From an uncultured Acidobacteriia bacterium (GTDB lineage: Bacteria; Acidobacteriota; Terriglobia; Bryobacterales; Bryobacteraceae): a stretch of 52,137 bases of DNA. Positions 17,373 to 26,860 of the stretch are shown here, one piece after another. The translations under genes and the position numbers were made by a program. Positions within the stretch are counted from its first letter, which is position 1. Each line of letters begins with the position of its first letter. Under the pieces are notes generated by a model that saw only the letters and a program-made list of their open reading frames with translations, had not been told where the DNA came from and searched no databases. The DNA is taken from positions 1 through 52,137 of the forward strand of contig CAIVPR010000176.1 of NCBI GenBank assembly GCA_903907865.1. The letters are read 5' to 3'.

Positions 17373-20300
17373 ATGAAGACCATCACACGTTTTGCCGCCG
17401 TAGCCCTCGCAGTGGCCGCGAGCCTTTTCGCCCAGGATCTCCGCACCGCCACGCTGCTCGGCACGGTTACCGACGCCAGCGGTGCCACCGTCGCCGACGC
17501 CTCGGTGACAGTCACAAACATTGACACCAACACGGTGTCGAAGAGCAAGACGAATACCGACGGCGCGTACTACGTGCCATTTCTGATCGCGGGCCGGTAC
17601 AAGGTCGACGTGGAAGTGCCGGGTTTCAAGAAGTTCGAGCGCGGAGGCCTTGTGCTCAACGCCGGCGAAACGCCGCGCATTGATGTCCAACTCGTGATCG
17701 GTGCCGTCACCGAGGAGATCAAAGTGATGGCCGAGGCGTCGCTTCTTGCCACGGACAACGCCGTGATTGGCGGCATCACCAACGCCAAGGACATCCACGA
17801 CACCCCCATCCCGCAGTCCAAGCCGCAGCACTTCATGTACTACCAGATGGGCGCGCAGGCCAACAACGACGGCACGTACCACGTTCTCGGCCAACCCGAA
17901 CAGCAGCTTTCCTACTCCATCGACGGTGTCACTGCCAAGCAAGCCTTCGGCAAGGCGCTGGGCGACACCAACACACTGGTCACGCCTCCCGTGGACTCCC
18001 TGCAGGAGGCGCAGGTCTTCACCACCGGCATCCCGGCCGAAATCGGACACGCGGCCGGCGGCGCATACAACCTGACCACCAAGAGCGGCACCAACGAACT
18101 GCATTTCTCCGCCGAAGAGCGCTACATCAACAAGGCTTGGCTGCACCGCCAGGTGTTCAACCAGTTCTCCACCACCACGCCGTTCGAATACCACAACTTC
18201 AACTCCACCCTAAGCGGCCCCATCGTCCTGCCCAAGGTCTACAACGGCAAGAACAAGACCTTCTTTTTCCTCGGCTACCGGCTCGACTACGACCACGAGA
18301 CCAACTACGCCACTGTCTCCGTGCCCACCCAGGACGAGCTCAACGGCGACTTCAGCTTTGGCGGCGTCGGACTCGGCATCTATGACCCCAAGTCGATCAC
18401 CACCTGCGCGGCCGGCACCGCCAACTGCAACAGCGGCTACACGGCGACCAAGTTCACGGGCAACATCATCCCCGCCAGCCGCATCGACCCGGTGACCAAG
18501 AAGTTCTTCTCGCTCAACCCCTACAACCTGCCGAACCTGCCCAGCACCTTCACCACCACGGGCCCGGTGAACAACTTCTATTCCGGCAACCACTACATTT
18601 CAGACCGCCAGGCGTACCTCAGCAAAATCGACCAGCAGCTTGGTGACACGCAGAAGGTCTTCGTCCGCTACATCTGGAACAAGTACCGCGTCATCGGCAG
18701 CCGCAACAACGTGCTGTTCAACTGGAGCGCCATCGACAATACCTCGTTGGGCTTCGGCCTTCCGGAACCGATCGACGAGCGCAACATCGCCCTCAGCCAC
18801 ATCTACACCATCAGCCCCACGCTGATCAACGAGGTGCGCCTCGGGTACCAGCGGCGCAACGACATCATCACCCCGGTGACCTTGGGACAGGGTTGGGCGG
18901 CGACGCTCGGCATCCCCGGTGTCGGTCCGCAAACCTTCCCGGGCCTCGTCAGCGGCGGCGGCAGCAGCTTCACGTGGACGGCGAATCCAGGCGGGGCGTC
19001 GCGGACCCTCAACGAGGGCATCACCATGGCCGACAACATGACCAAGGTCTGGGGCCTCCACACCCTCAAATGGGGTTACCAGGGAATCCTGCAGCGCGAA
19101 AACGACATCGCGGCCTCGCAGCCGTCCGGCGTGTTCAATTTCTCCCAAGGCAACAGCGGCCTGCCGTTCGGCCCCAACACGGGCAACTCGTTCGCGTCGC
19201 TCGAACTGGGCGCGGTCTCTTCAGCGAGCTTCACCACGCTGTTGCAGAACTACCTGCCGCGCTGGTGGATGCACCAGTTCTACGTCCAGGACGACTGGCG
19301 CATCCGCCGCGACCTCACGATTTCAATCGGCGTCCGGTTCAGCCACGAGGCGCCTGCCAGCACCCAGTATGGAAACAAATCGCAGTTCAGCCCCACCACG
19401 ACCGACCCGCTCACCGGCCTGATGGGTGCCATCGTCCACCCCAAGGGCGCGCTCTACGGTGCCGGAAACCACTTCACGCCGCGGCTTGGATTCGCATGGA
19501 ACTTCCGGCCCAAGTTTGTGGCCCGCGGATCGTTCGGCATGTTCACGCAGGACATCGTGCAGCAGGTGGGGCAAGACGAATACACGGCGCAGTCGGTGGT
19601 GCAGCAGGTGTCCGGCAATCCAAATCCCGCGTTCTATCTATCGCAGGGTCCGGGGGCATTCGCGTACAACATCAACTCCTCCGCGGGAACCGCGCAGTTC
19701 GTCGGTAGCAACTACAGCTCGCGAAATATCACCTTCATCGACCCGGCGTTGCGGAATCCCTACTCGCTGACGTGGTCCGGCAGCCTGCAGTACGAATTCA
19801 AGCCCAACTATCTGGCGGAAGTGGTGTACCAGGGTGCGGCCGGGGTCGGACTGATCAACACGGGCGGAATTAACATCAACGTGCTCCCCGCGTCTATCTA
19901 CAATTCGACCGACAGCACGGTTCTGAATAATGCCTTCTCGAACACGCAGTCGTTCGTGAAGTACCCGCAATTCGGTGCCATCAACGAGTTCAGCAACTTC
20001 GGCCACAGCACGTTCAACTCGATGATTGCGCGGATTCAGCACCGCTTCAGCGACGGCTTCTCGGCGAACTCGATGTTCACCTATAGCAAGGCGATTGCGG
20101 GCGGCGCGGCGTCGGGCTGGGAATACTATGGCTGGCGGCAGACCAAGGCCGTCGCCGGATTCGACCAGAAGTTCCAGTTCGTGAACCAATACAACTACGA
20201 CCTGCCGTTCGGCAAGGGCCGCCGCTTTTTGGACAAGGGCGGTATTGTGGACCAGGTTTTCGGCGGCTGGACAGTCCTGACGATCCAGAGCGTTCGGAGC

Positions 20301-20774
20301 GGCCTGCCGGTAACCTTCGGCTTCTCGGGCAGCTCGAACAAATACCTGCCGGGACAAGGCAGCGCGCCGAGCATCAATCCAGGCGTGGCGATCAACGTCC
20401 CGAATTATGCCATCGGCCCGAATATGTGGCCGCAGCAATCCCAGAATCCGTTCTATAACATCAACGCCTTCTACGCCCCGGCCTCGTTCACGCAGGGCAA
20501 CGCCGGCGCGGGAATCGCAAGGACGGGCTGGCTGTGGTGGCCGCAGTACTCCATCACCAAGACTTGGAGCTACAAGGAGAAGTACAAGTTGACCGCCCGG
20601 ATGGACGCCAACAACCTCTTCCCGGAGACCCGTTGGCTGAACACGGCGAACAACACCGTGAATTTCTCCAGCCCCACGCTCTTCGGCAAGTTCCCGGCGA
20701 CGACAGGGTATTCGTTCAGCAACTTCTACGGACAAAACGGGACTTTCCAGGGGTCGCTGCGGATCTCGTTCTAA
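17373..20774 (+). CDS. Oar-like TonB-dependent receptor with carboxypeptidase-regulatory domain
   Basis: A 1133-residue outer-membrane protein of the large acidobacterial Oar-like group. It has a signal peptide (MKTITRFAAVALAVAASLFAQ), then a carboxypeptidase-regulatory-like beta-sandwich (about 24-110: LLGTVTDASGATVADASVTVTN through GRYKVDVEVPGFKKFE), a plug domain with YSIDGVTA and AEIGHAAGGAYNLTTKSGTNELHFSAEERY, and a long beta-barrel with many aromatic strands. It ends LRISF, a normal barrel terminus. These receptors are thought to take up large nutrients such as oligosaccharides or peptides, or to act at the cell surface. No partner SusD-like gene lies beside it. Confidence 0.95.
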   Translation: MKTITRFAAVALAVAASLFAQDLRTATLLGTVTDASGATVADASVTVTNIDTNTVSKSKTNTDGAYYVPFLIAGRYKVDVEVPGFKKFERGGLVLNAGETPRIDVQLVIGAVTEEIKVMAEASLLATDNAVIGGITNAKDIHDTPIPQSKPQHFMYYQMGAQANNDGTYHVLGQPEQQLSYSIDGVTAKQAFGKALGDTNTLVTPPVDSLQEAQVFTTGIPAEIGHAAGGAYNLTTKSGTNELHFSAEERYINKAWLHRQVFNQFSTTTPFEYHNFNSTLSGPIVLPKVYNGKNKTFFFLGYRLDYDHETNYATVSVPTQDELNGDFSFGGVGLGIYDPKSITTCAAGTANCNSGYTATKFTGNIIPASRIDPVTKKFFSLNPYNLPNLPSTFTTTGPVNNFYSGNHYISDRQAYLSKIDQQLGDTQKVFVRYIWNKYRVIGSRNNVLFNWSAIDNTSLGFGLPEPIDERNIALSHIYTISPTLINEVRLGYQRRNDIITPVTLGQGWAATLGIPGVGPQTFPGLVSGGGSSFTWTANPGGASRTLNEGITMADNMTKVWGLHTLKWGYQGILQRENDIAASQPSGVFNFSQGNSGLPFGPNTGNSFASLELGAVSSASFTTLLQNYLPRWWMHQFYVQDDWRIRRDLTISIGVRFSHEAPASTQYGNKSQFSPTTTDPLTGLMGAIVHPKGALYGAGNHFTPRLGFAWNFRPKFVARGSFGMFTQDIVQQVGQDEYTAQSVVQQVSGNPNPAFYLSQGPGAFAYNINSSAGTAQFVGSNYSSRNITFIDPALRNPYSLTWSGSLQYEFKPNYLAEVVYQGAAGVGLINTGGININVLPASIYNSTDSTVLNNAFSNTQSFVKYPQFGAINEFSNFGHSTFNSMIARIQHRFSDGFSANSMFTYSKAIAGGAASGWEYYGWRQTKAVAGFDQKFQFVNQYNYDLPFGKGRRFLDKGGIVDQVFGGWTVLTIQSVRSGLPVTFGFSGSSNKYLPGQGSAPSINPGVAINVPNYAIGPNMWPQQSQNPFYNINAFYAPASFTQGNAGAGIARTGWLWWPQYSITKTWSYKEKYKLTARMDANNLFPETRWLNTANNTVNFSSPTLFGKFPATTGYSFSNFYGQNGTFQGSLRISF

Positions 20775-20776
20775 GC

Positions 20777-20802
20777 GGCTAGACTGCAGGGCTAGACTGC
20801 AG
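20777..20802 (+). repeat. Tandem 13-bp repeat carrying a TAGACT box
   Basis: The unit GGCTAGACTGCAG occurs twice without spacing, just after the receptor stop and before the next gene. Each unit contains TAGACT, a plausible -10 hexamer that also occurs before the carbonic anhydrase gene (GGCTAGACTG at 16610-16619) and the glycosyltransferase gene (complement of 40027-40032). The repeat may have duplicated a promoter box. Confidence 0.7.
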
Positions 20803-20819: not shown

Positions 20820-21131
20820 ATGACCCGTATCCTCCAACAACTCGGCCTGTCCATCGTCATGGCGGCCACGCTCCTGGCCCACGGGGGCGGAGAACATCTG
20901 ACAGGAACCGTGAAATCGATCGCGGCGGACAAGCTCGTCTTGGAGACGACGAAGCGCGAAACGCTGACGATCGTCCTGACCGCCAAGACCCAGGTCGTCA
21001 AGAGCAAGGCCAAGGGCGACCTGAAGGATCTGAAGGCCGGTGACCGCGCGGTGGTCCACGCCGCCAAGAACAAGGCTGGCCAGTGGGAAGCCGAGGAAGT
21101 CGATTTCGGACCCGCTCCGGCGGCCAAATAA
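20820..21131 (+). CDS. Exported small protein, DUF5666-like
   Basis: A 103-residue protein with a signal peptide ending about residue 20 (LGLSIVMAATLLA), then HGGGEHLTGTVKSIAADKLVLETTKRETLTIVLTAKTQVVKSKAKGDLKDLKAGDRAVVHA. This is one small beta-barrel (OB-like) unit like those in DUF5666 proteins, with the TxVxxxKGxxxDLKxGDRVxV pattern. The function is unknown; such domains often accompany metal or envelope stress genes. A TATTCT box lies eight bases before the ATG with no Shine-Dalgarno, suggesting a leaderless transcript. Confidence 0.75.
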   Translation: MTRILQQLGLSIVMAATLLAHGGGEHLTGTVKSIAADKLVLETTKRETLTIVLTAKTQVVKSKAKGDLKDLKAGDRAVVHAAKNKAGQWEAEEVDFGPAPAAK

Positions 21132-21171
21132 AGTATTGTGGGGCGGCACCCCGGTGGGAGAGAATGGCACT

Positions 21172-22521
21172 GTGGGCCAACCGTACTCCCTGCAGGAACT
21201 CGCGCTGAAGAACTTCCGGTGCTTTCCGGAGCTGCGTGTTCAATTTCATGAGCGGTTGACGGTGTTGGTGGCCAGAAATGGTGGCGGCAAGACTGCGCTG
21301 CTTGACGGGATCGCGGTGGGACTCCGGCCGTTCGTGGACAAGCTGGGGGGACGCAGCATGTCCGCCGGATTCACCATTCGCGACACGCGGAGGCGTCAGA
21401 CCCGCGACGGCCGGATGGAAATGGTGCAGCCCGTTCGGCTCGAACTTCGGGGGACGTTCGGCGGAGTGGATCTGCATTGGGCGCGGCAGGGCAGTGGTCG
21501 AACCACCATGGCTGAGGCAAAGCCGCTTCAGAACTGTGCGGCGCAATTGTTGGGCCAAATCCGTGACTGGGATGAATTAAGGAGTCCGGTAGATCCGGTC
21601 CAGCCTCTTATCTGCTATTACGGCACGGGTCGGCTATGGGATAGCAACAATCGACTCAGTGCCAAGCTGAAGGTGCGCGGCCCCGCGCCGAACGGGCGGA
21701 GTACAGGCTATGTGGACTGCCTGTCCTCCTCCTCCCACTACAAGTTCTTCCTGAATTGGTTCCGCAGGTTTTCCTATGCGTCCAAACAGTTCCGGGACGA
21801 TACCGGGAGTCTACCCCCCAACTCGGCGCTTCAAGCAATTGGAAAGGCAGTCGACATAGCTCTGCGGTCGAGCGGCTGGCACTCGCTTGAGTGGGATTTC
21901 GCGGAGGATGAGGCGCGCGTGAGCCATCCGGCTCATGGACGTTTGCCGGTCGATATGCTGAGCGACGGGGTGCGGAGCATGATTGGGCTGGTTGCGGACC
22001 TTGCCCACAGGGCCGTTCGGCTCAATCCCCAATATACATTCCTGGCCGCCATGGAGACACCCGGGATCGTCCTCATTGACGAGGTGGACCTGCACCTGCA
22101 CCCGGAATGGCAGCAGAGAATACTCTCGTCGTTGCTCGATGCTTTCCCGAAAGTCCAATTCATTGTCACAACCCACAGCCCGCAAGTCCTGACAACCACC
22201 CGGAAGGAAAACATTCGGGTGCTGGCTGCGGACGCAAACGGGGAGTGGTCGGCTCGCCAGCCCGAGAACAGCCCGCTGGCGCATGATTCCAGCGACGCTC
22301 TCGCCTTGGTCATGGATGTTGCGCCCCGCCCCGAGTTGGGGGTAACAAAGGACATCCACGCATACGAATTGATGGCCCGCGAAGGTGGGATGGATTCGGA
22401 AGCAGCCCTCAAGATCCGGGGACGACTGGACGCGGAAGGCTTCGAGTTCGGCGGAGCGGATCAGGCTCTCTTCGAGTTCTTGGCCCGAAAGGCGCACGTC
22501 AAACGAGCGGAGTTGGTGTGA
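21172..22521 (+). CDS. AAA/ABC-type ATPase, PtuA-like (Septu defence)
   Basis: An ATPase of about 449 residues related to COG3950/AAA_15-type ATPases. From the GTG at 21172 it begins VGQPYSLQELALKNFRCFPELRVQF, with Walker A ARNGGGKT (about 34-41), an ABC-like signature MLSDGVRSMIGLVADLAHR (about 260), Walker B VLIDEVDLHLHPEWQQRIL (about 305), and a His switch in FIVTTHSPQVL. It is paired with an HNH nuclease by a GTGA overlap, the arrangement of Septu (PtuAB) antiphage systems, where PtuA forms the ATP-sensing scaffold. Longer upstream starts would run into the preceding gene. No reverse transcriptase is present, so it is not a retron. The Septu label is inference from family and order. Confidence 0.75.
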   Translation: MGQPYSLQELALKNFRCFPELRVQFHERLTVLVARNGGGKTALLDGIAVGLRPFVDKLGGRSMSAGFTIRDTRRRQTRDGRMEMVQPVRLELRGTFGGVDLHWARQGSGRTTMAEAKPLQNCAAQLLGQIRDWDELRSPVDPVQPLICYYGTGRLWDSNNRLSAKLKVRGPAPNGRSTGYVDCLSSSSHYKFFLNWFRRFSYASKQFRDDTGSLPPNSALQAIGKAVDIALRSSGWHSLEWDFAEDEARVSHPAHGRLPVDMLSDGVRSMIGLVADLAHRAVRLNPQYTFLAAMETPGIVLIDEVDLHLHPEWQQRILSSLLDAFPKVQFIVTTHSPQVLTTTRKENIRVLAADANGEWSARQPENSPLAHDSSDALALVMDVAPRPELGVTKDIHAYELMAREGGMDSEAALKIRGRLDAEGFEFGGADQALFEFLARKAHVKRAELV

Positions 22522-23102
22522 TTGAACTGGACCACGCGCTGAGTGAACCTCCCGAGCTTGCACGTTTCCGGCGACGGTATCCAGATGCGTCGTGGGGCGA
22601 GCCAGAATTCGGGGCAATTAAGCCAGTAGTGCAACGGCAACTGCATTTCGAACAAGCTGGCTTGTGCGTGTATTGCGAAGGTTCGCTCGCGGTCGACGAG
22701 GGGCACCTGGAGCACATCCAGCCCCGATCGGCGGTCCCGGATCGGACATTCGAGTACACCAACTTGGCGCATAGCTGCAATGGCTCGACCCCTCCGCAGC
22801 ATTGTGGTCATTGGAAGGCGGACCGACCGCTGCCGGTGGAGCCCCGCATTGAATGCAACCAGTTCTTTTCGTTCATTGGCAGCGACGGGAATGTCGTACC
22901 CGCGATGGGTCTGTCTCCCGAAGACCGGGAGCGGGCGCGAGGGACAATCGACGTTCTCGGCCTGAATGTCCCTCGACTGGCGCACGCGCGGAGGCGGTAC
23001 TACGAAGCCGCGCGGTACTTGGCCGATTCGGATCGGGACGACTTTCTCCAATCCCAGCCTTTCCGCTGGACTCTGCGTCGCGCATTCCCCAAGTCGTCAT
23101 AG
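22518..23102 (+). CDS. HNH endonuclease, TIGR02646/PtuB-like
   Basis: A 194-residue HNH nuclease. The His-Me core is C50-x2-C53 (CVYCEG), HLEHIQPRS with H63 and H66, then N82 (TNLAHSCNGS) with C87 and a second CGHWK knuckle at C96. This resembles TIGR02646 proteins, which serve as PtuB nucleases in Septu and in retron-Septu systems. It starts with GTG overlapping the ATPase stop by four bases, so it is translationally coupled. On infection it would degrade nucleic acid; the trigger and target cannot be read here. The C-terminal 90 residues are helical and less conserved. Confidence 0.8.
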   Translation: MIELDHALSEPPELARFRRRYPDASWGEPEFGAIKPVVQRQLHFEQAGLCVYCEGSLAVDEGHLEHIQPRSAVPDRTFEYTNLAHSCNGSTPPQHCGHWKADRPLPVEPRIECNQFFSFIGSDGNVVPAMGLSPEDRERARGTIDVLGLNVPRLAHARRRYYEAARYLADSDRDDFLQSQPFRWTLRRAFPKSS

Positions 23103-23127: not shown

Positions 23128-23493
23128 ATGAAGAAGAACTGGCTGATTCCCGTCGCCATCGCCGCCGCCTACGCCATCGGTCGAGCCCAAGGTCCGGCAG
23201 GCGTGGCACCCTCCGTAGCCCCGGATGTGAAGCTCGAAAACAACCGCGTCCGGGTTACGGAACTCGACTATCATCCCGCCGTGCCTCGCGAGAAGTCCAT
23301 CCGCAAGGCCGACCAGGTCATCGTCTTCCTCGACGACTCCCGGTACGAACGCATCGACCCCGACACGGGCGCCAAGGAGATCCGCACACGCAAATCCGGC
23401 GACGTGATTTGGCATTTCAAGGGCGAAGTGGCACCGGTCCTCACCAATCAGGATAAGAAAACCTACCGCACGCTGGTCATCGAACTCAAATGA
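23128..23493 (+). CDS. Exported cupin-like protein
   Basis: A 121-residue protein with an N-terminal membrane or signal segment (MKKNWLIPVAIAAAYAIGRA), then a single small beta-barrel-like domain: VKLENNRVRVTELDYHPAVPREKS, QVIVFLDDSRYERID, KSGDVIWHFKGEVAPVLTN and YRTLVIELK. The pattern of an ENxxVRVxE strand and a later GDVxWH strand is that of small cupins, though the metal-binding His set is incomplete. The function is unknown. It overlaps the hydrolase start by four bases (ATGA), so the two are co-translated. Confidence 0.65.
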   Translation: MKKNWLIPVAIAAAYAIGRAQGPAGVAPSVAPDVKLENNRVRVTELDYHPAVPREKSIRKADQVIVFLDDSRYERIDPDTGAKEIRTRKSGDVIWHFKGEVAPVLTNQDKKTYRTLVIELK

Positions 23494-24779
23494 AGCGGCT
23501 CCTGCTACTTGCGGCGCTGGTGGCCCCGGCCTCCGCCCAAACCTTCTACAGTGTCCCCGGCCCGGACGCGCCGGAACTGGCCCGGCGCGGTTCCTTCGGG
23601 GTCGGCGTGCGCACGATGGACCTAGTCCACAAGGGGCAGGTCGACATCCTGAAGTTCGACAAGGACACAGGCAAGGCCCCGCTCTACGACCGTCCGCTCA
23701 AGGTGGAACTCTGGTACCCGGCCCTTATCCCGGCGGGCGTCGAGGAGAAGACCACTTACACCAGCCGCAATCCCGGCAACACCAACCCGCCGGGCAGCTT
23801 TGAAACGATCGGGAAGGCGCTCCGCGACGCCGTCCCGCTGCCCGACCGCAAGTTCCCGTTGGTCGTCGTCTCGCACGGCTATCCCGGCACGCGCACATTT
23901 TTGACGTACCTCACCGAAAACCTGGCGTCGAAGGGGTATGTGGTGGCGGCCATCGACCATACCGATTCCGTCCTCGGCGAGATCCGCCCGTTCCAGAGCA
24001 CGTTGCTGAACCGCTCGGCCGACCAACTATTCGTGGTCGAATCGCTTTCCACCCTGCCCGACGTCGATGCCTCCAACACGGCCATCGTCGGCTATTCGAT
24101 GGGCGGCTACGGGGCGCTCACCAGCGCCGGTGCCGGAATCAGTTCCAAAAGCGCACTAGCGACGTTCGTCCCCGGCGGTTATCTCGCCGACTGGTTCGCC
24201 GACAGCCCCAAGTTCCAGGGTCTGAACCGGTCGACGATCAAGGGCATCGTCGCCATCGCGCCGTGGGGCGAGCAGCCGCCGAACAACGCCTGGGACGCGG
24301 CAGGCTTGGCGGGAATCCGCATCCCCTCGCTCTTCATCGCAGGCGACCAGGACGACGTTGCCGACTACGCCAACGGCAATCGGCCCGCCTTCGAAAAGGC
24401 CATAAACTCCGACCGCTGCATGCTGGTTTACGAGAACGCCAGCCACAACACCGGCGGCAATCCACTTCCGATGCCGACCACCGATCCGCGCTTCCTCTCC
24501 TTCTTCCAAGAATCGGTATGGCGCAAGGACCGGATCAACGCCATCAACCAGCACTTCATCACCGCCTTCCTCGACTGGACGCTCAAGGGCGAGACTGCGA
24601 AGCGGGAATACCTGCACTTGGCCATCCCCCGATCCAGCGACGGCAAGTGGGTCATGTCGCCGGGCTCGCAAGATGCCGGACAGTTCAGCACCGGCAAAGA
24701 CGCGCAGGGGAATCTGTTTTGGAAAGGGTTCCAGCGGCGGTCCGCGTTGGGGCTGGAGATGCGCTGCTTGGAGAAATGA
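23490..24779 (+). CDS. Secreted alpha/beta hydrolase (dienelactone hydrolase/PAF-acetylhydrolase type)
   Basis: A 429-residue secreted hydrolase with signal peptide MKRLLLLAALVAPASAQ. The fold is marked by VELWYPA, FPLVVVSHGYPGTRTFLTYLTENLASKGYVVAAIDHTDS (oxyanion-hole strand and loop) and the nucleophile elbow GYSMGGYG. SLFIAGDQDDVADYA gives the probable acidic residue, and the segment around YENASHNTGG the His. Such enzymes cleave esters or platelet-activating-factor-like lipids. Its last 44 coding bases are one copy of a perfect direct repeat, and the stop TGA is partly supplied by the inserted element that follows. Before the insertion the gene would have ended TAG, one base before the S41-like gene. 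Confidence 0.88.
   Translation: MKRLLLLAALVAPASAQTFYSVPGPDAPELARRGSFGVGVRTMDLVHKGQVDILKFDKDTGKAPLYDRPLKVELWYPALIPAGVEEKTTYTSRNPGNTNPPGSFETIGKALRDAVPLPDRKFPLVVVSHGYPGTRTFLTYLTENLASKGYVVAAIDHTDSVLGEIRPFQSTLLNRSADQLFVVESLSTLPDVDASNTAIVGYSMGGYGALTSAGAGISSKSALATFVPGGYLADWFADSPKFQGLNRSTIKGIVAIAPWGEQPPNNAWDAAGLAGIRIPSLFIAGDQDDVADYANGNRPAFEKAINSDRCMLVYENASHNTGGNPLPMPTTDPRFLSFFQESVWRKDRINAINQHFITAFLDWTLKGETAKREYLHLAIPRSSDGKWVMSPGSQDAGQFSTGKDAQGNLFWKGFQRRSALGLEMRCLEK
24734..24777 (+). repeat. 44-bp direct repeat, left copy
   Basis: Identical over 44 bases to 25569-25612. This copy is the 3' end of the hydrolase gene and ends on the first base of its stop codon. The copies bracket an 835-bp insertion. 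Upstream of both copies AGGGT is also shared in diverged context, so the original duplication may have been slightly longer. Confidence 0.95.
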
Positions 24780-24786
24780 TGTAGAG

Positions 24787-24797
24787 CCTGTCGTGAC
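24787..24797 (+). repeat. Left inverted end of inserted element
   Basis: CCTGTCGTGAC, matching the reverse complement of 25554-25564 at 10 of 11 positions. It lies nine bases inside the left 44-bp repeat. Confidence 0.5.
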
Positions 24798-24852
24798 TTG
24801 AGCCGGCGCGCGTTCGGATTTCGGCCATAACTACTGTGATATTCTCCTCTCT

Positions 24853-25557
24853 ATGATGCAAACTGCCAGTCCGCAAAGGTTGCCGATCATTCACGGCCCT
24901 ACTAGGGTCGTAGTGCAGCCCGTCAGGCTGCACCGCGAAGACTATGCACACGTCATCGATATCTTCGCTCACAGTAGGTGCACTCACTTGAGAATTGAGG
25001 CCATCGATGATCCGGCGGCACCAGCGAAGCTGGTGACGCCCCCGGAGGGAATCAGTCAGTTGGCGGAGGTTATTCAATCGCTACGAGTGATGGCTGACGG
25101 TCCAACGGTCTCGATTCAGTTGAGCGATAAGAGCGCCATGATTGAGGTTAACCATGATGATGGCTCGGATGGATTCTACGAGATTGGGCTTGCAACGAGC
25201 TTGGCCAAGATTCTCGACCGGCATCCTGCCCACCGAATCGCGCGCGCGTGGTTCGGTACGAGCACCGCGGCCGCCTTTGTAGGTGCAATAGCGTGCTGGG
25301 AAATCAGAGAACATGGCATTATTGACGGTGATAATTATCAGTTTTTTCGGATTATCGCAATGTGTTCAGCACTTTTTTATTTGTGCTATTTTACATTCGT
25401 CCAATGGTATTGGCGGCCGTTCAAGATGTACAATAGGTCTCGAGATGCGTCTCGGCCATCTCGAAGCGACTGGGTGAAGATCATTGTTGGAGCAATCGCG
25501 GCGGGCATCTGCAAGGTTCTCTTCGACGCCCTCACAAGACACGCCACCGGCAGGTGA
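24853..25557 (+). CDS. Orphan membrane protein in inserted element
   Basis: A 234-residue protein I do not recognise. Residues 1-130 look soluble, with alternating strands (VVVQPVRLHREDYAHVIDIF, HLRIEAID, VSIQLSDKSAMIEVNHDD) and an amphipathic helix near 112-122. Three hydrophobic segments follow at about 133-149, 164-186 and 208-226, with a basic loop between the last two (KMYNRSRDASRPSRSDW). There is no signal peptide. The overall plan, a soluble sensor-like domain before a short membrane block, is seen in some defence effectors, but nothing here proves that. TATTCT lies seven bases before the ATG, so it probably carries its own leaderless promoter. The TGA lies in the right inverted end. 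Confidence 0.75.
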   Translation: MMQTASPQRLPIIHGPTRVVVQPVRLHREDYAHVIDIFAHSRCTHLRIEAIDDPAAPAKLVTPPEGISQLAEVIQSLRVMADGPTVSIQLSDKSAMIEVNHDDGSDGFYEIGLATSLAKILDRHPAHRIARAWFGTSTAAAFVGAIACWEIREHGIIDGDNYQFFRIIAMCSALFYLCYFTFVQWYWRPFKMYNRSRDASRPSRSDWVKIIVGAIAAGICKVLFDALTRHATGR

Positions 25558-25564
25558 CGACAGG
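25554..25564 (+). repeat. Right inverted end of inserted element
   Basis: GTGACGACAGG, the partner of 24787-24797 with one mismatch. It includes the stop codon of the orphan membrane-protein gene and ends four bases before the right 44-bp repeat. Confidence 0.5.
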
Positions 25565-25568
25565 GTCT

Positions 25569-25612
25569 GCGGCGGTCCGCGTTGGGGCTGGAGATGCGCT
25601 GCTTGGAGAAAT
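25569..25612 (+). repeat. 44-bp direct repeat, right copy
   Basis: Identical to 24734-24777. In the frame of the hydrolase it still reads to LEK and then TAG, followed by one base and the ATG of the S41-like gene, so this copy keeps the original gene junction. It is no longer attached to an open hydrolase frame. Confidence 0.95.
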
Positions 25613-25615
25613 AGG

Positions 25616-26860
25616 ATGTGCCGTATGGGTCGCGCACTCTTAGTCCTGTTCTGCACGTCGGTCGTTTGCCCGGCCCTCACACCGGACCAGTGGCGTCAGG
25701 ATCTGCAGGCGCTGGCAACCCGTTTACCCGCGTTGGATCAATATTTTTTCGTCCATGCTTCCCGTTCCGACTTCGATGCGGCCGTGGCGGTCTTGGACGC
25801 GGACCTTTCCAATCTTTCCGACGGACAGATTGTCAGCCGCATGGCCCAACTGGTGGCGATGGGCGGGGATGGCCATACAAACCTGTCGCTCCTGCAGTCG
25901 GCAGCGAAATTCCATGTTTTCCCTTTGGCGCTCTCGTGGTTCCAAGAGGGCATCTACGTCACCGGAGCCGCGTCGTCACCGGCAGCCTTGCCCGCTCTGG
26001 GGAAGCGTTTGATTCGCATCAACGACACGGCTGTCGATGACGCAGTGGCGCTGGTGTCGACCGCGATCTCGCATGACACCGACCAGTGGGTCAAATTCCA
26101 AGCCCCCGCCTACTTGGCCATTCCCGAGCTTCTGGCAACAGTCGGCATCATCCCTGACCCTTCCCAAGCCCGATACACTTTCGACAACGGGGATGGCACC
26201 GAGCTCCCGGTCGACTTGGCGGCCTTTCCGACGGGTAGTTCGGTGGCATACAAGGCCCCGCGCTCAGCGTTCCCCAACCAACCGCTCTACCAGCGAAACT
26301 CCCTGTTCTACTACTGGGCCCGGTATTTGGACGACTCCTCCACACTCTACATCAAATACAACAGCTGCGCGCAGGACCCGTCGTTCCCGTTCGCCGTCTT
26401 CGTCGCGCAGGTACTGGCCGTGGTCGATAACAAGCCGGTCTCACGGATCATTTATGACTTACGGAACAACGAGGGCGGCGACACGTCCGTCATCCAGCCG
26501 CTGCTGGCCGGACTCCAGGATCGGCAACGGCGCGGTATCCTCCCTGCCGGGCTTTCGACGGTGACGATCATTGGACGGGAGACATTTTCGTCCGGTGTCC
26601 TCAACGCCTATGACATGTGGGTCAAGGGGGCCACGCTGGTGGGGGAGGCTGCGGGCTGGAATCCCAATGGTTTCGGACAGGTGGGGTCGTTGTATCTGCC
26701 CAACTCCGGCTTGAGGGTCTCGTATTCCACGAGGAAATTCACGCTGGGTGGAGTAGGCTCGCTCTTGGTGCCCGATGTGGCAGTTGACTGGAGGTGGGCC
26801 GACTACGTGCAGGAAGGCGACGCATTCCTGGCTGCGGCGCTGACAGTGCAGCCGCGATAG
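25616..26860 (+). CDS. Secreted S41-like peptidase
   Basis: A protein of about 414 residues with a signal peptide (MCRMGRALLVLFCTSVVCPA). The C-terminal half resembles the S41 (tail-specific protease) fold: VSRIIYDLRNNEGGDTSVIQPLLAGL matches the family strand with D-x-R-x-N-x-G-G. GRETFSSGVLNAYDMWVKGATLVGEAAG is the region that holds the catalytic Ser in the family. No PDZ domain is evident; the N-terminal half has a helical part (DALATRLPALDQYFF-like) and YLAIPELL. The substrate is unknown. The in-frame ATG at 25484 lies inside the inserted element and is rejected. It was probably co-transcribed with the hydrolase before the insertion. Confidence 0.8.
   Translation: MCRMGRALLVLFCTSVVCPALTPDQWRQDLQALATRLPALDQYFFVHASRSDFDAAVAVLDADLSNLSDGQIVSRMAQLVAMGGDGHTNLSLLQSAAKFHVFPLALSWFQEGIYVTGAASSPAALPALGKRLIRINDTAVDDAVALVSTAISHDTDQWVKFQAPAYLAIPELLATVGIIPDPSQARYTFDNGDGTELPVDLAAFPTGSSVAYKAPRSAFPNQPLYQRNSLFYYWARYLDDSSTLYIKYNSCAQDPSFPFAVFVAQVLAVVDNKPVSRIIYDLRNNEGGDTSVIQPLLAGLQDRQRRGILPAGLSTVTIIGRETFSSGVLNAYDMWVKGATLVGEAAGWNPNGFGQVGSLYLPNSGLRVSYSTRKFTLGGVGSLLVPDVAVDWRWADYVQEGDAFLAAALTVQPR

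What the first reader, a model, noticed from the sequence alone, without database searches (positions are those of the whole stretch)
24734..25612. 835-bp insertion between 44-bp perfect direct repeats at the stop codon of a hydrolase gene, with no recombinase
Seen: 24734-24777 and 25569-25612 are identical. Deleting 24778-25612 gives a hydrolase stop directly before the S41-like start (TAG-G-ATG), and the element supplies the last two bases of the present TGA stop. Inverted ends CCTGTCGT[G/C]AC lie inside the repeats. Known: integrases often target gene 3' ends and regenerate them by duplicating the core site. Inference: this is a mini-element that uses a helper recombinase, or the scar of one.
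Basis: partly seen in the sequence, partly recalled or inferred. Interest (0 to 1): 0.75.

Follow-up and report, generated by a model that had tools for sequence, protein, structure and literature searches.

The report
Transposon-like gene insertion, long target duplication
A 786-base piece of foreign-looking DNA carrying one unknown gene sits at the end of a bacterial enzyme gene, bounded by matching inverted ends and by an unusually long (about 50-base) copy of the spot where it landed, which suggests a small transposon-like insertion that has no enzyme of its own to move it.

Summary
In detail: 24734-24777 and 25569-25612 are identical over 44 of 44 bases. The tools sharpen it. With one 2-base gap (AG) the copies are 49 and 51 bp. 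They then end flush, on both sides, against inverted repeats matching at 15 of 18 bases (AGASCCTGTCGTSACYTG) at 24783 and 25568; none of 20,000 shuffles gives ends as good. The 786-bp interior has 53.7% GC, lower than all 996 other slices of that size tested in the window. It holds one sizeable 234-aa gene without a believable relative in the collections searched. In nine relatives the hydrolase end is not duplicated, and 20 reading frames downstream include no integrase; the duplicated piece is the hydrolase 3' end. In this genome the ends recur nowhere else within one mismatch. No exact empty site was found. Best reading: a non-autonomous, transposon-like cassette inserted with a ~50-bp target duplication by an enzyme acting in trans. 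Closest precedents: IS1634/IS1549 (direct repeats of 8-514 bp), "insertion with long target duplication" in Helicobacter, and mobile insertion cassettes. The integrase reading is weaker. The helper is unknown and the evidence rests on one copy.

The parts
23490..24779 (+). host gene: PET-hydrolase-like alpha/beta hydrolase (429 aa), whose last codons lie in repeat copy 1; present stop TGA at 24777-24779
   Evidence: Pfam PF12740 E 2.4e-16; orthologue 84% identical in G015 ends in a matching stretch
24734..24782 (.). direct repeat copy 1 (44 identical bases 24734-24777, then GATGT; 49 bp with a 2-base gap against copy 2)
24783..24800 (+). left terminal inverted repeat AGAGCCTGTCGTGACTTG
   Evidence: 15 of 18 match to the right end; 0 of 20,000 shuffles
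24783..25568 (.). inserted element, 786 bp, 53.7% GC (flanks 61-64%)
   Evidence: lower GC than all 996 other 786-bp slices tested in the window
24853..25557 (+). passenger ORF, 234 aa: unknown N-terminal part, then two hydrophobic stretches (about 164-185 and 205-229)
   Evidence: GC3 0.60 against 0.68-0.85 in 7 neighbouring genes; no family and no believable relative
25551..25568 (-). right terminal inverted repeat AGACCCTGTCGTCACCTG
25569..25619 (.). direct repeat copy 2 (44 identical bases 25569-25612, then AGGATGT; 51 bp)
25616..26860 (+). downstream gene, S41-peptidase-like (414 aa), whose start codon lies inside copy 2
   Evidence: PF03572 E 0.0027, below the gathering score; homologues 64-66% identical in G015 and G018, elsewhere in their genomes

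Best explanation
This is a non-autonomous, transposon-like cassette: 786 bp bounded by 18-bp imperfect terminal inverted repeats and carrying one passenger gene for a predicted membrane protein. It inserted at the boundary between the hydrolase stop codon and the next start codon, duplicating about 51 bp of target. Copy 1 later lost AG, which turned the TAG stop into TGA (or copy 2 gained it). Shown: the repeats, the flush inverted ends, the odd composition, the absence of a recognisable recombinase gene in the insert, and that the duplicated piece belongs to the hydrolase. Inferred: that a transposase acting in trans recognised the inverted ends; that the long duplication arose in that event (cuts far apart, or replication repair); and that the gene is expressed. 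No helper was identified.
For: Perfect 44-bp direct repeat, the only one of its kind in the window, the stretch being single in the genome. Repeats extend to 49/51 bp and meet inverted ends of 15/18 on both sides; 0 of 20,000 shuffles. Among 451 direct-repeat pairs in 1.2 Mb of this genome, the only repeat of 30 or more bases with such ends. The insert has the lowest GC of the slices tested in the window, and its gene has a lower GC3 than 7 neighbours. In nine relatives the hydrolase end is not duplicated. IS1634 and IS1549, which are insertion sequences with inverted ends, make direct repeats of 8-514 bp (PMC2266710, passages read).
Against: Single copy: in this genome the ends recur nowhere else with 0-1 mismatch; with 2 mismatches there are 35 further hits, and the total of 37 is below the 57 of the reversed-pattern control. 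Among 61 relatives the exact pattern has 10 matches (2 of them the element itself) against 9 in the control. No convergent close pair was seen among the matches listed for 200 genomes of the order, but that list was cut by the tool. Of 15 exact matches in the public genome collection none has a correctly oriented partner end within 3 mismatches in the DNA held. Of 30 IS1634-family loci from this clade, 19 gave readable inverted repeats; none is CCTGTCGT-like and none has a long direct repeat. No exact empty site. A ~50-bp duplication is far above the 4-13 bp listed for the IS4-related groups (table).
Confidence: 0.55

Rival explanations
1. Insertion with long target duplication of the Helicobacter kind: a linear or circular DNA carrying the gene was joined at a break with re-synthesis of about 50 bp of target, with no transposase; the inverted ends are incidental or part of the incoming DNA.
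For: This pattern, a gene flanked by long direct repeats of target, is described for restriction-modification genes in Helicobacter (PMC1643837 and PMC3031569, passages read). A defence pair (Septu-like) is inserted in the same gene cluster. No transposase with matching ends was found.
Against: Inverted ends of 15/18 exactly at the repeat boundary are not expected by chance (0 of 20,000).
Confidence: 0.22
2. Site-specific integration: an integrase acting in trans recombined a circular element carrying a copy of the hydrolase 3' end (attP) with the chromosomal 3' end (attB), leaving attL and attR; the inverted repeats are arm-type binding sites.
For: Position at a gene 3' end that is restored; identical 44-bp segments; the 2-base difference could be an attP/attB difference.
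Against: No integrase gene inside; no duplication at this gene end in 9 relatives and no integrase among 20 downstream frames; arm sites have no reason to be flush with both ends of the identity; the hydrolase gene is not widely conserved (14 of 61 genomes, its own included).
Confidence: 0.13
3. Campbell-type integration by ordinary homologous recombination of a circle that happened to carry 44-51 bp of the hydrolase end, or a tandem duplication with later divergence.
For: Direct repeats result from a single crossover.
Against: A donor with the same gene order would be expected to share more than 51 bp; the inverted ends are unexplained; apart from the 44-bp repeat, only short matches (up to 17 nt) link the interior to its surroundings.
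Confidence: 0.07

Closest known systems
IS1634 / IS1549 insertion sequences (IS1634 family)
   Same: Inverted ends plus long, variable direct repeats of target (8-514 bp reported; PMC2266710, passages)
   Different: Those carry their own transposase, and the family's ends begin with C (table), which these do not. Of 30 IS1634-family loci loaded from this clade, 19 gave readable inverted repeats, all unlike these ends, with no shared stretch over 12 bases within 700 bp of the ends.
Insertion with long target duplication (Nobusato et al. 2000; seen only as cited in PMC1643837 and PMC3031569)
   Same: A gene flanked by long direct repeats of the target
   Different: Described for restriction-modification genes; the passages read do not mention inverted ends at the junctions. 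Here the passenger is an unknown predicted membrane protein and inverted ends are present.
Mobile insertion cassettes (MIC231 type)
   Same: Need for a transposase in trans (PMC6542083, passage); IS ends around an unrelated passenger gene with no transposase (recalled)
   Different: MIC231 has IS231 ends (recalled), a subgroup with 10-12 bp duplications. The ends here match no IS found, and the duplication is about 50 bp.
att-flanked elements without integrase (CIME-like; recalled)
   Same: Direct repeats at a gene 3' end, no recombinase inside
   Different: No sign of recurrent use of the site, and inverted ends flush with the repeats

Membership tests
Transposon-type insertion (non-autonomous / mobile insertion cassette) | terminal inverted repeats flush with the target duplication | tested here: met
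   15/18, flush at 24783 and 25568 if the 2-base gap is accepted; 0 of 20,000 shuffles, and 0 of 4,000 with offsets up to 6
Transposon-type insertion (non-autonomous / mobile insertion cassette) | ends shared with an autonomous element that supplies the transposase | tested here: not met
   no other copy with 0-1 mismatch in own genome; no pair among the listed matches of 200 genomes, list cut; no correctly oriented partner for 15 public matches. A draft assembly can miss multi-copy elements.
IS1634 family | IS1634-type ends or transposase | tested here: not met
   no transposase inside; ends unlike those read in 19 of 30 IS1634-family loci
IS1634 family | long, variable direct repeats at insertion sites | tested here: inconclusive
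   49/51 bp here, one site only, so variability cannot be judged
Insertion with long target duplication | long direct repeat of target flanking an inserted gene, empty site in a relative | tested here: inconclusive
   repeat present; hydrolase end not duplicated in 9 relatives; exact empty site absent because the S41-like neighbour differs
Integrase-type att-flanked element | recurrent attachment site or integrase at this gene end | tested here: not met
   in 9 of the 13 other genomes with a hydrolase match, no duplicate of the gene end and no integrase family among 20 downstream frames; the other 4 were not examined or end within the gene
Integrase-type att-flanked element | excision to a circle | not testable with these tools
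   needs PCR or reads

The most novel reading that the evidence does not exclude
A distinct class of transposon-like cassettes exists: bounded by inverted ends, carrying a single (perhaps defence-related) gene and no transposase, and inserted by a mechanism that duplicates about 50 bp of target at gene boundaries without breaking either gene. It would link the unexplained 'insertion with long target duplication' of defence genes to inverted-end transposition.
Probability: 0.12. Interest if true: 0.7.

Novelty: new variant of a known kind. Interest (0 to 1): 0.38.

Why it matters
Long target duplications in bacteria lacked a mechanistic model when the IS4-family review was written (2008; PMC2266710, on IS1634 and IS1549); I did not establish whether one has been proposed since. 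This locus has both a long duplication and clear inverted ends around a minimal 786-bp insert without its own enzyme. It is therefore a compact test case for whether inverted-end recognition and long target duplication go together, and a caution that such duplications can be mistaken for integrase attachment sites.

Tried and rejected
Helper search: inverted ends in own genome; in 61 relatives, exact (10 matches, 2 of them the element's own, against 9 for the reversed control); in 200 genomes of the order with 1 mismatch (the tool cut the list, so not all matches were seen; one outward-facing pair in G048:C19, 853 bp apart, was taken as chance); in the public genome collection (15 exact matches; none has a correctly oriented partner within 3 mismatches; L124 has a 3-mismatch reverse match, but upstream of its exact match); in viral contigs (1 match, no oppositely oriented partner). 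A convergent two-mismatch pair in own contig C99, 779 bp apart, looked promising but lies within ordinary genes (LOG-type, named from recall), and its 120-bp flanks share at most 7 bases: chance.

IS1634 as the helper: 65 matches in 41 genomes, 1 of them in this genome; 30 loci loaded. A first script read one strand only, so loci with the gene on the other strand were missed or misread; it was replaced, in which 19 of the 30 loci gave inverted repeats, none CCTGTCGT-like, no shared stretch over 12 bases within 700 bp of the ends, and at most a 5-base flush repeat. Not every repeat read there need be the true IS end. The core motif CCTGTCGT occurs once in these 30 loci and never as a pair.

Passenger gene: no Pfam or NCBIfam hit at E <= 1; PADLOC only a weak Hydrolase-TM match over the hydrophobic part (E 0.01); PHROGs was not searched. 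No match in plasmids, only E 0.6-0.8 matches in 4 phage records, none confirmed in viral contigs or in the public genome collection by peptide patterns (reaches close relatives only), none but its own in 396 genomes of the phylum and, among 61 relatives, its own plus one E 0.008 stretch of 42 residues with a stop, not believed. Structure prediction without an alignment failed (pLDDT 43), so no fold search was made.

Empty site: the fetched relatives do not keep hydrolase and S41-like gene side by side.

Papers: passages of PMC2266710, PMC1643837, PMC3031569, PMC4978471 and PMC6542083 were read; in PMC2654758, PMC11708052 and PMC2869330 the terms occurred only in the reference list. Nobusato et al. 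2000 itself was not seen; PMC2853133 is not held. In the listings I recognised no paper on bacterial elements with inverted ends and a ~50-bp duplication other than the IS1634 case; only titles and abstract openings were seen there, so this is a weak negative.

Full report
Observation. The sequence at 24734-24777 is repeated without a change at 25569-25612, 835 bp apart. It is the only direct repeat of at least 24 bases (exact seed 16, within 6 kb) that the repeat finder gives in the 52-kb window, and the stretch as a whole has no second match in the 7.5-Mb genome at E <= 0.001.

Refined anatomy. Beyond the 44 identical bases, copy 1 reads GATGT and copy 2 reads AGGATGT. Allowing one 2-base gap, the copies are 49 and 51 bp; a 5-base match at a gap of 0-3 occurs in about 1% of random pairs of places. 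The left copy then ends at 24782. The interior begins at 24783 with AGAGCCTGTCGTGACTTG and ends at 25568 with the reverse complement of AGACCCTGTCGTCACCTG: 15 of 18 positions agree, flush with the repeats on both sides. Of 20,000 dinucleotide shuffles of the interior none reached this score at the same ends; of 4,000 in which offsets of up to 6 bases were allowed, none did either. As an empirical control, exact direct repeats of 14 or more bases, 250-8000 bp apart, were listed in the window and 59 stretches of the same genome (1.2 Mb with 1-kb overlaps, 451 pairs, 11 of 30 or more bases). No other repeat of 30 or more bases had inverted ends scoring above 5, against 10.5 here; a single 14-base pair had a 9-base inverted match 7-8 bases inside. 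In a first set (window, 19 stretches of this genome, 12 of relatives; 364 pairs, many from a CRISPR-like array) the element was the only one scoring 8.5 or more.

What is inside. The interior is 786 bp at 53.7% GC; all 996 other 786-bp slices of the window that were tested are richer in GC. Its main reading frame, 24853-25557 (234 aa), has GC3 0.60 against 0.68-0.85 in seven neighbouring genes. Its second half contains hydrophobic stretches near residues 164-185 and 205-229. It matches no Pfam or NCBIfam model at E <= 1 and one PADLOC model weakly (Hydrolase-TM, E 0.01, over the hydrophobic part). No believable relative was found in 61 related genomes (its own, and one dubious 42-residue match), 396 genomes of the phylum (its own only), the public genome collection by peptide patterns, plasmids, phages (E 0.6 or worse) or viral contigs. 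Folding without an alignment failed (pLDDT 43). No transposase, integrase or other recombinase is recognised in the insert. No sigma-70-type promoter was found in 24650-25700 by a simple scan.

Which piece was duplicated. The hydrolase (PET-hydrolase-like) has matches in 14 of 61 genomes searched, its own included. In the nearest relative with a complete gene (G015, 84% identity) the gene ends ...RRAALGLQMRCLAN-stop, matching ...RRSALGLEMRCLEK-stop of repeat copy 1. The duplicated piece is therefore the hydrolase 3' end, and copy 2, upstream of the S41-like gene, is the extra one. In nine of the 13 other genomes with a match, the downstream side was examined (of the other four, G018's contig ends within the gene, and G005, G022 and G053 were not fetched further). 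None of the nine has a 14-base duplicate of the last 90 bases of the gene in the downstream DNA held (up to 4 kb). Pfam scans of 20 downstream frames, 2-3 from each of the nine, give metabolic and other families, no integrase and no transposase. The S41-like gene is not next to the hydrolase in any fetched relative; in G015 and G018 its homologues lie elsewhere, beside matches to the window's TonB-receptor-like gene at 17373-20774 (that label is mine). The exact empty site is therefore not available, and insertion is inferred, not shown.

Mechanism. A long direct repeat ending flush at inverted ends on both sides is what a transposase acting on the inverted ends, with a very long target duplication, would leave. 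The insert has no recognisable enzyme, so the enzyme would have to act in trans, as for mobile insertion cassettes (PMC6542083, passages). Long duplications are documented for IS1634 and IS1549, with 8-514 bp and, in 2008, no proposed model (PMC2266710, passages). They are also documented for 'insertion with long target duplication' of restriction-modification genes in Helicobacter (Nobusato et al. 2000, seen only as cited in PMC1643837 and PMC3031569). The present element is not shown to belong to either. Of 30 loaded IS1634-family loci of the clade, 19 gave readable inverted repeats; none resembles these ends and none has a long direct repeat. No family with these ends was found.

The integrase reading explains the gene-end position and the identity. 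It does not explain the flush inverted ends, and it finds no support in nine relatives. A break-repair type insertion without transposase stays possible and would also leave the inverted ends unexplained.

Verdict. A real insertion-like structure, best read as a single-copy, non-autonomous transposon-like cassette with a ~50-bp target duplication, helper unknown. It is unusual within known kinds rather than a new kind. The main limits are one copy, no empty site and no helper.

Noticed in passing
21040-23102: A Septu-like defence pair (PtuA-type ATPase, PtuB-type HNH nuclease) sits between a small gene (20820-21131) and another small gene (23128-23493) that are adjacent in G015 and G018: a second accessory insertion in the same gene cluster; no direct or inverted repeat was seen at its two ends.
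   Followed up: partly
20777-20802: Two head-to-tail copies of GGCTAGACTGCAG between the TonB-receptor-like gene and the small gene.
   Followed up: no
L100 about 158-1104 (G016:C179): CRISPR-like array: about 29-base repeats at spacings that are multiples of 61 bases, on a relative's contig that also carries the hydrolase gene.
   Followed up: no
L166 36-2036 and L183 11925-14344 (own genome, contigs C126 and C117): Long direct repeats with constant spacing (1833 and 2110 bp; exact runs of up to 98 bases), probably tandem paralogous genes.
   Followed up: no
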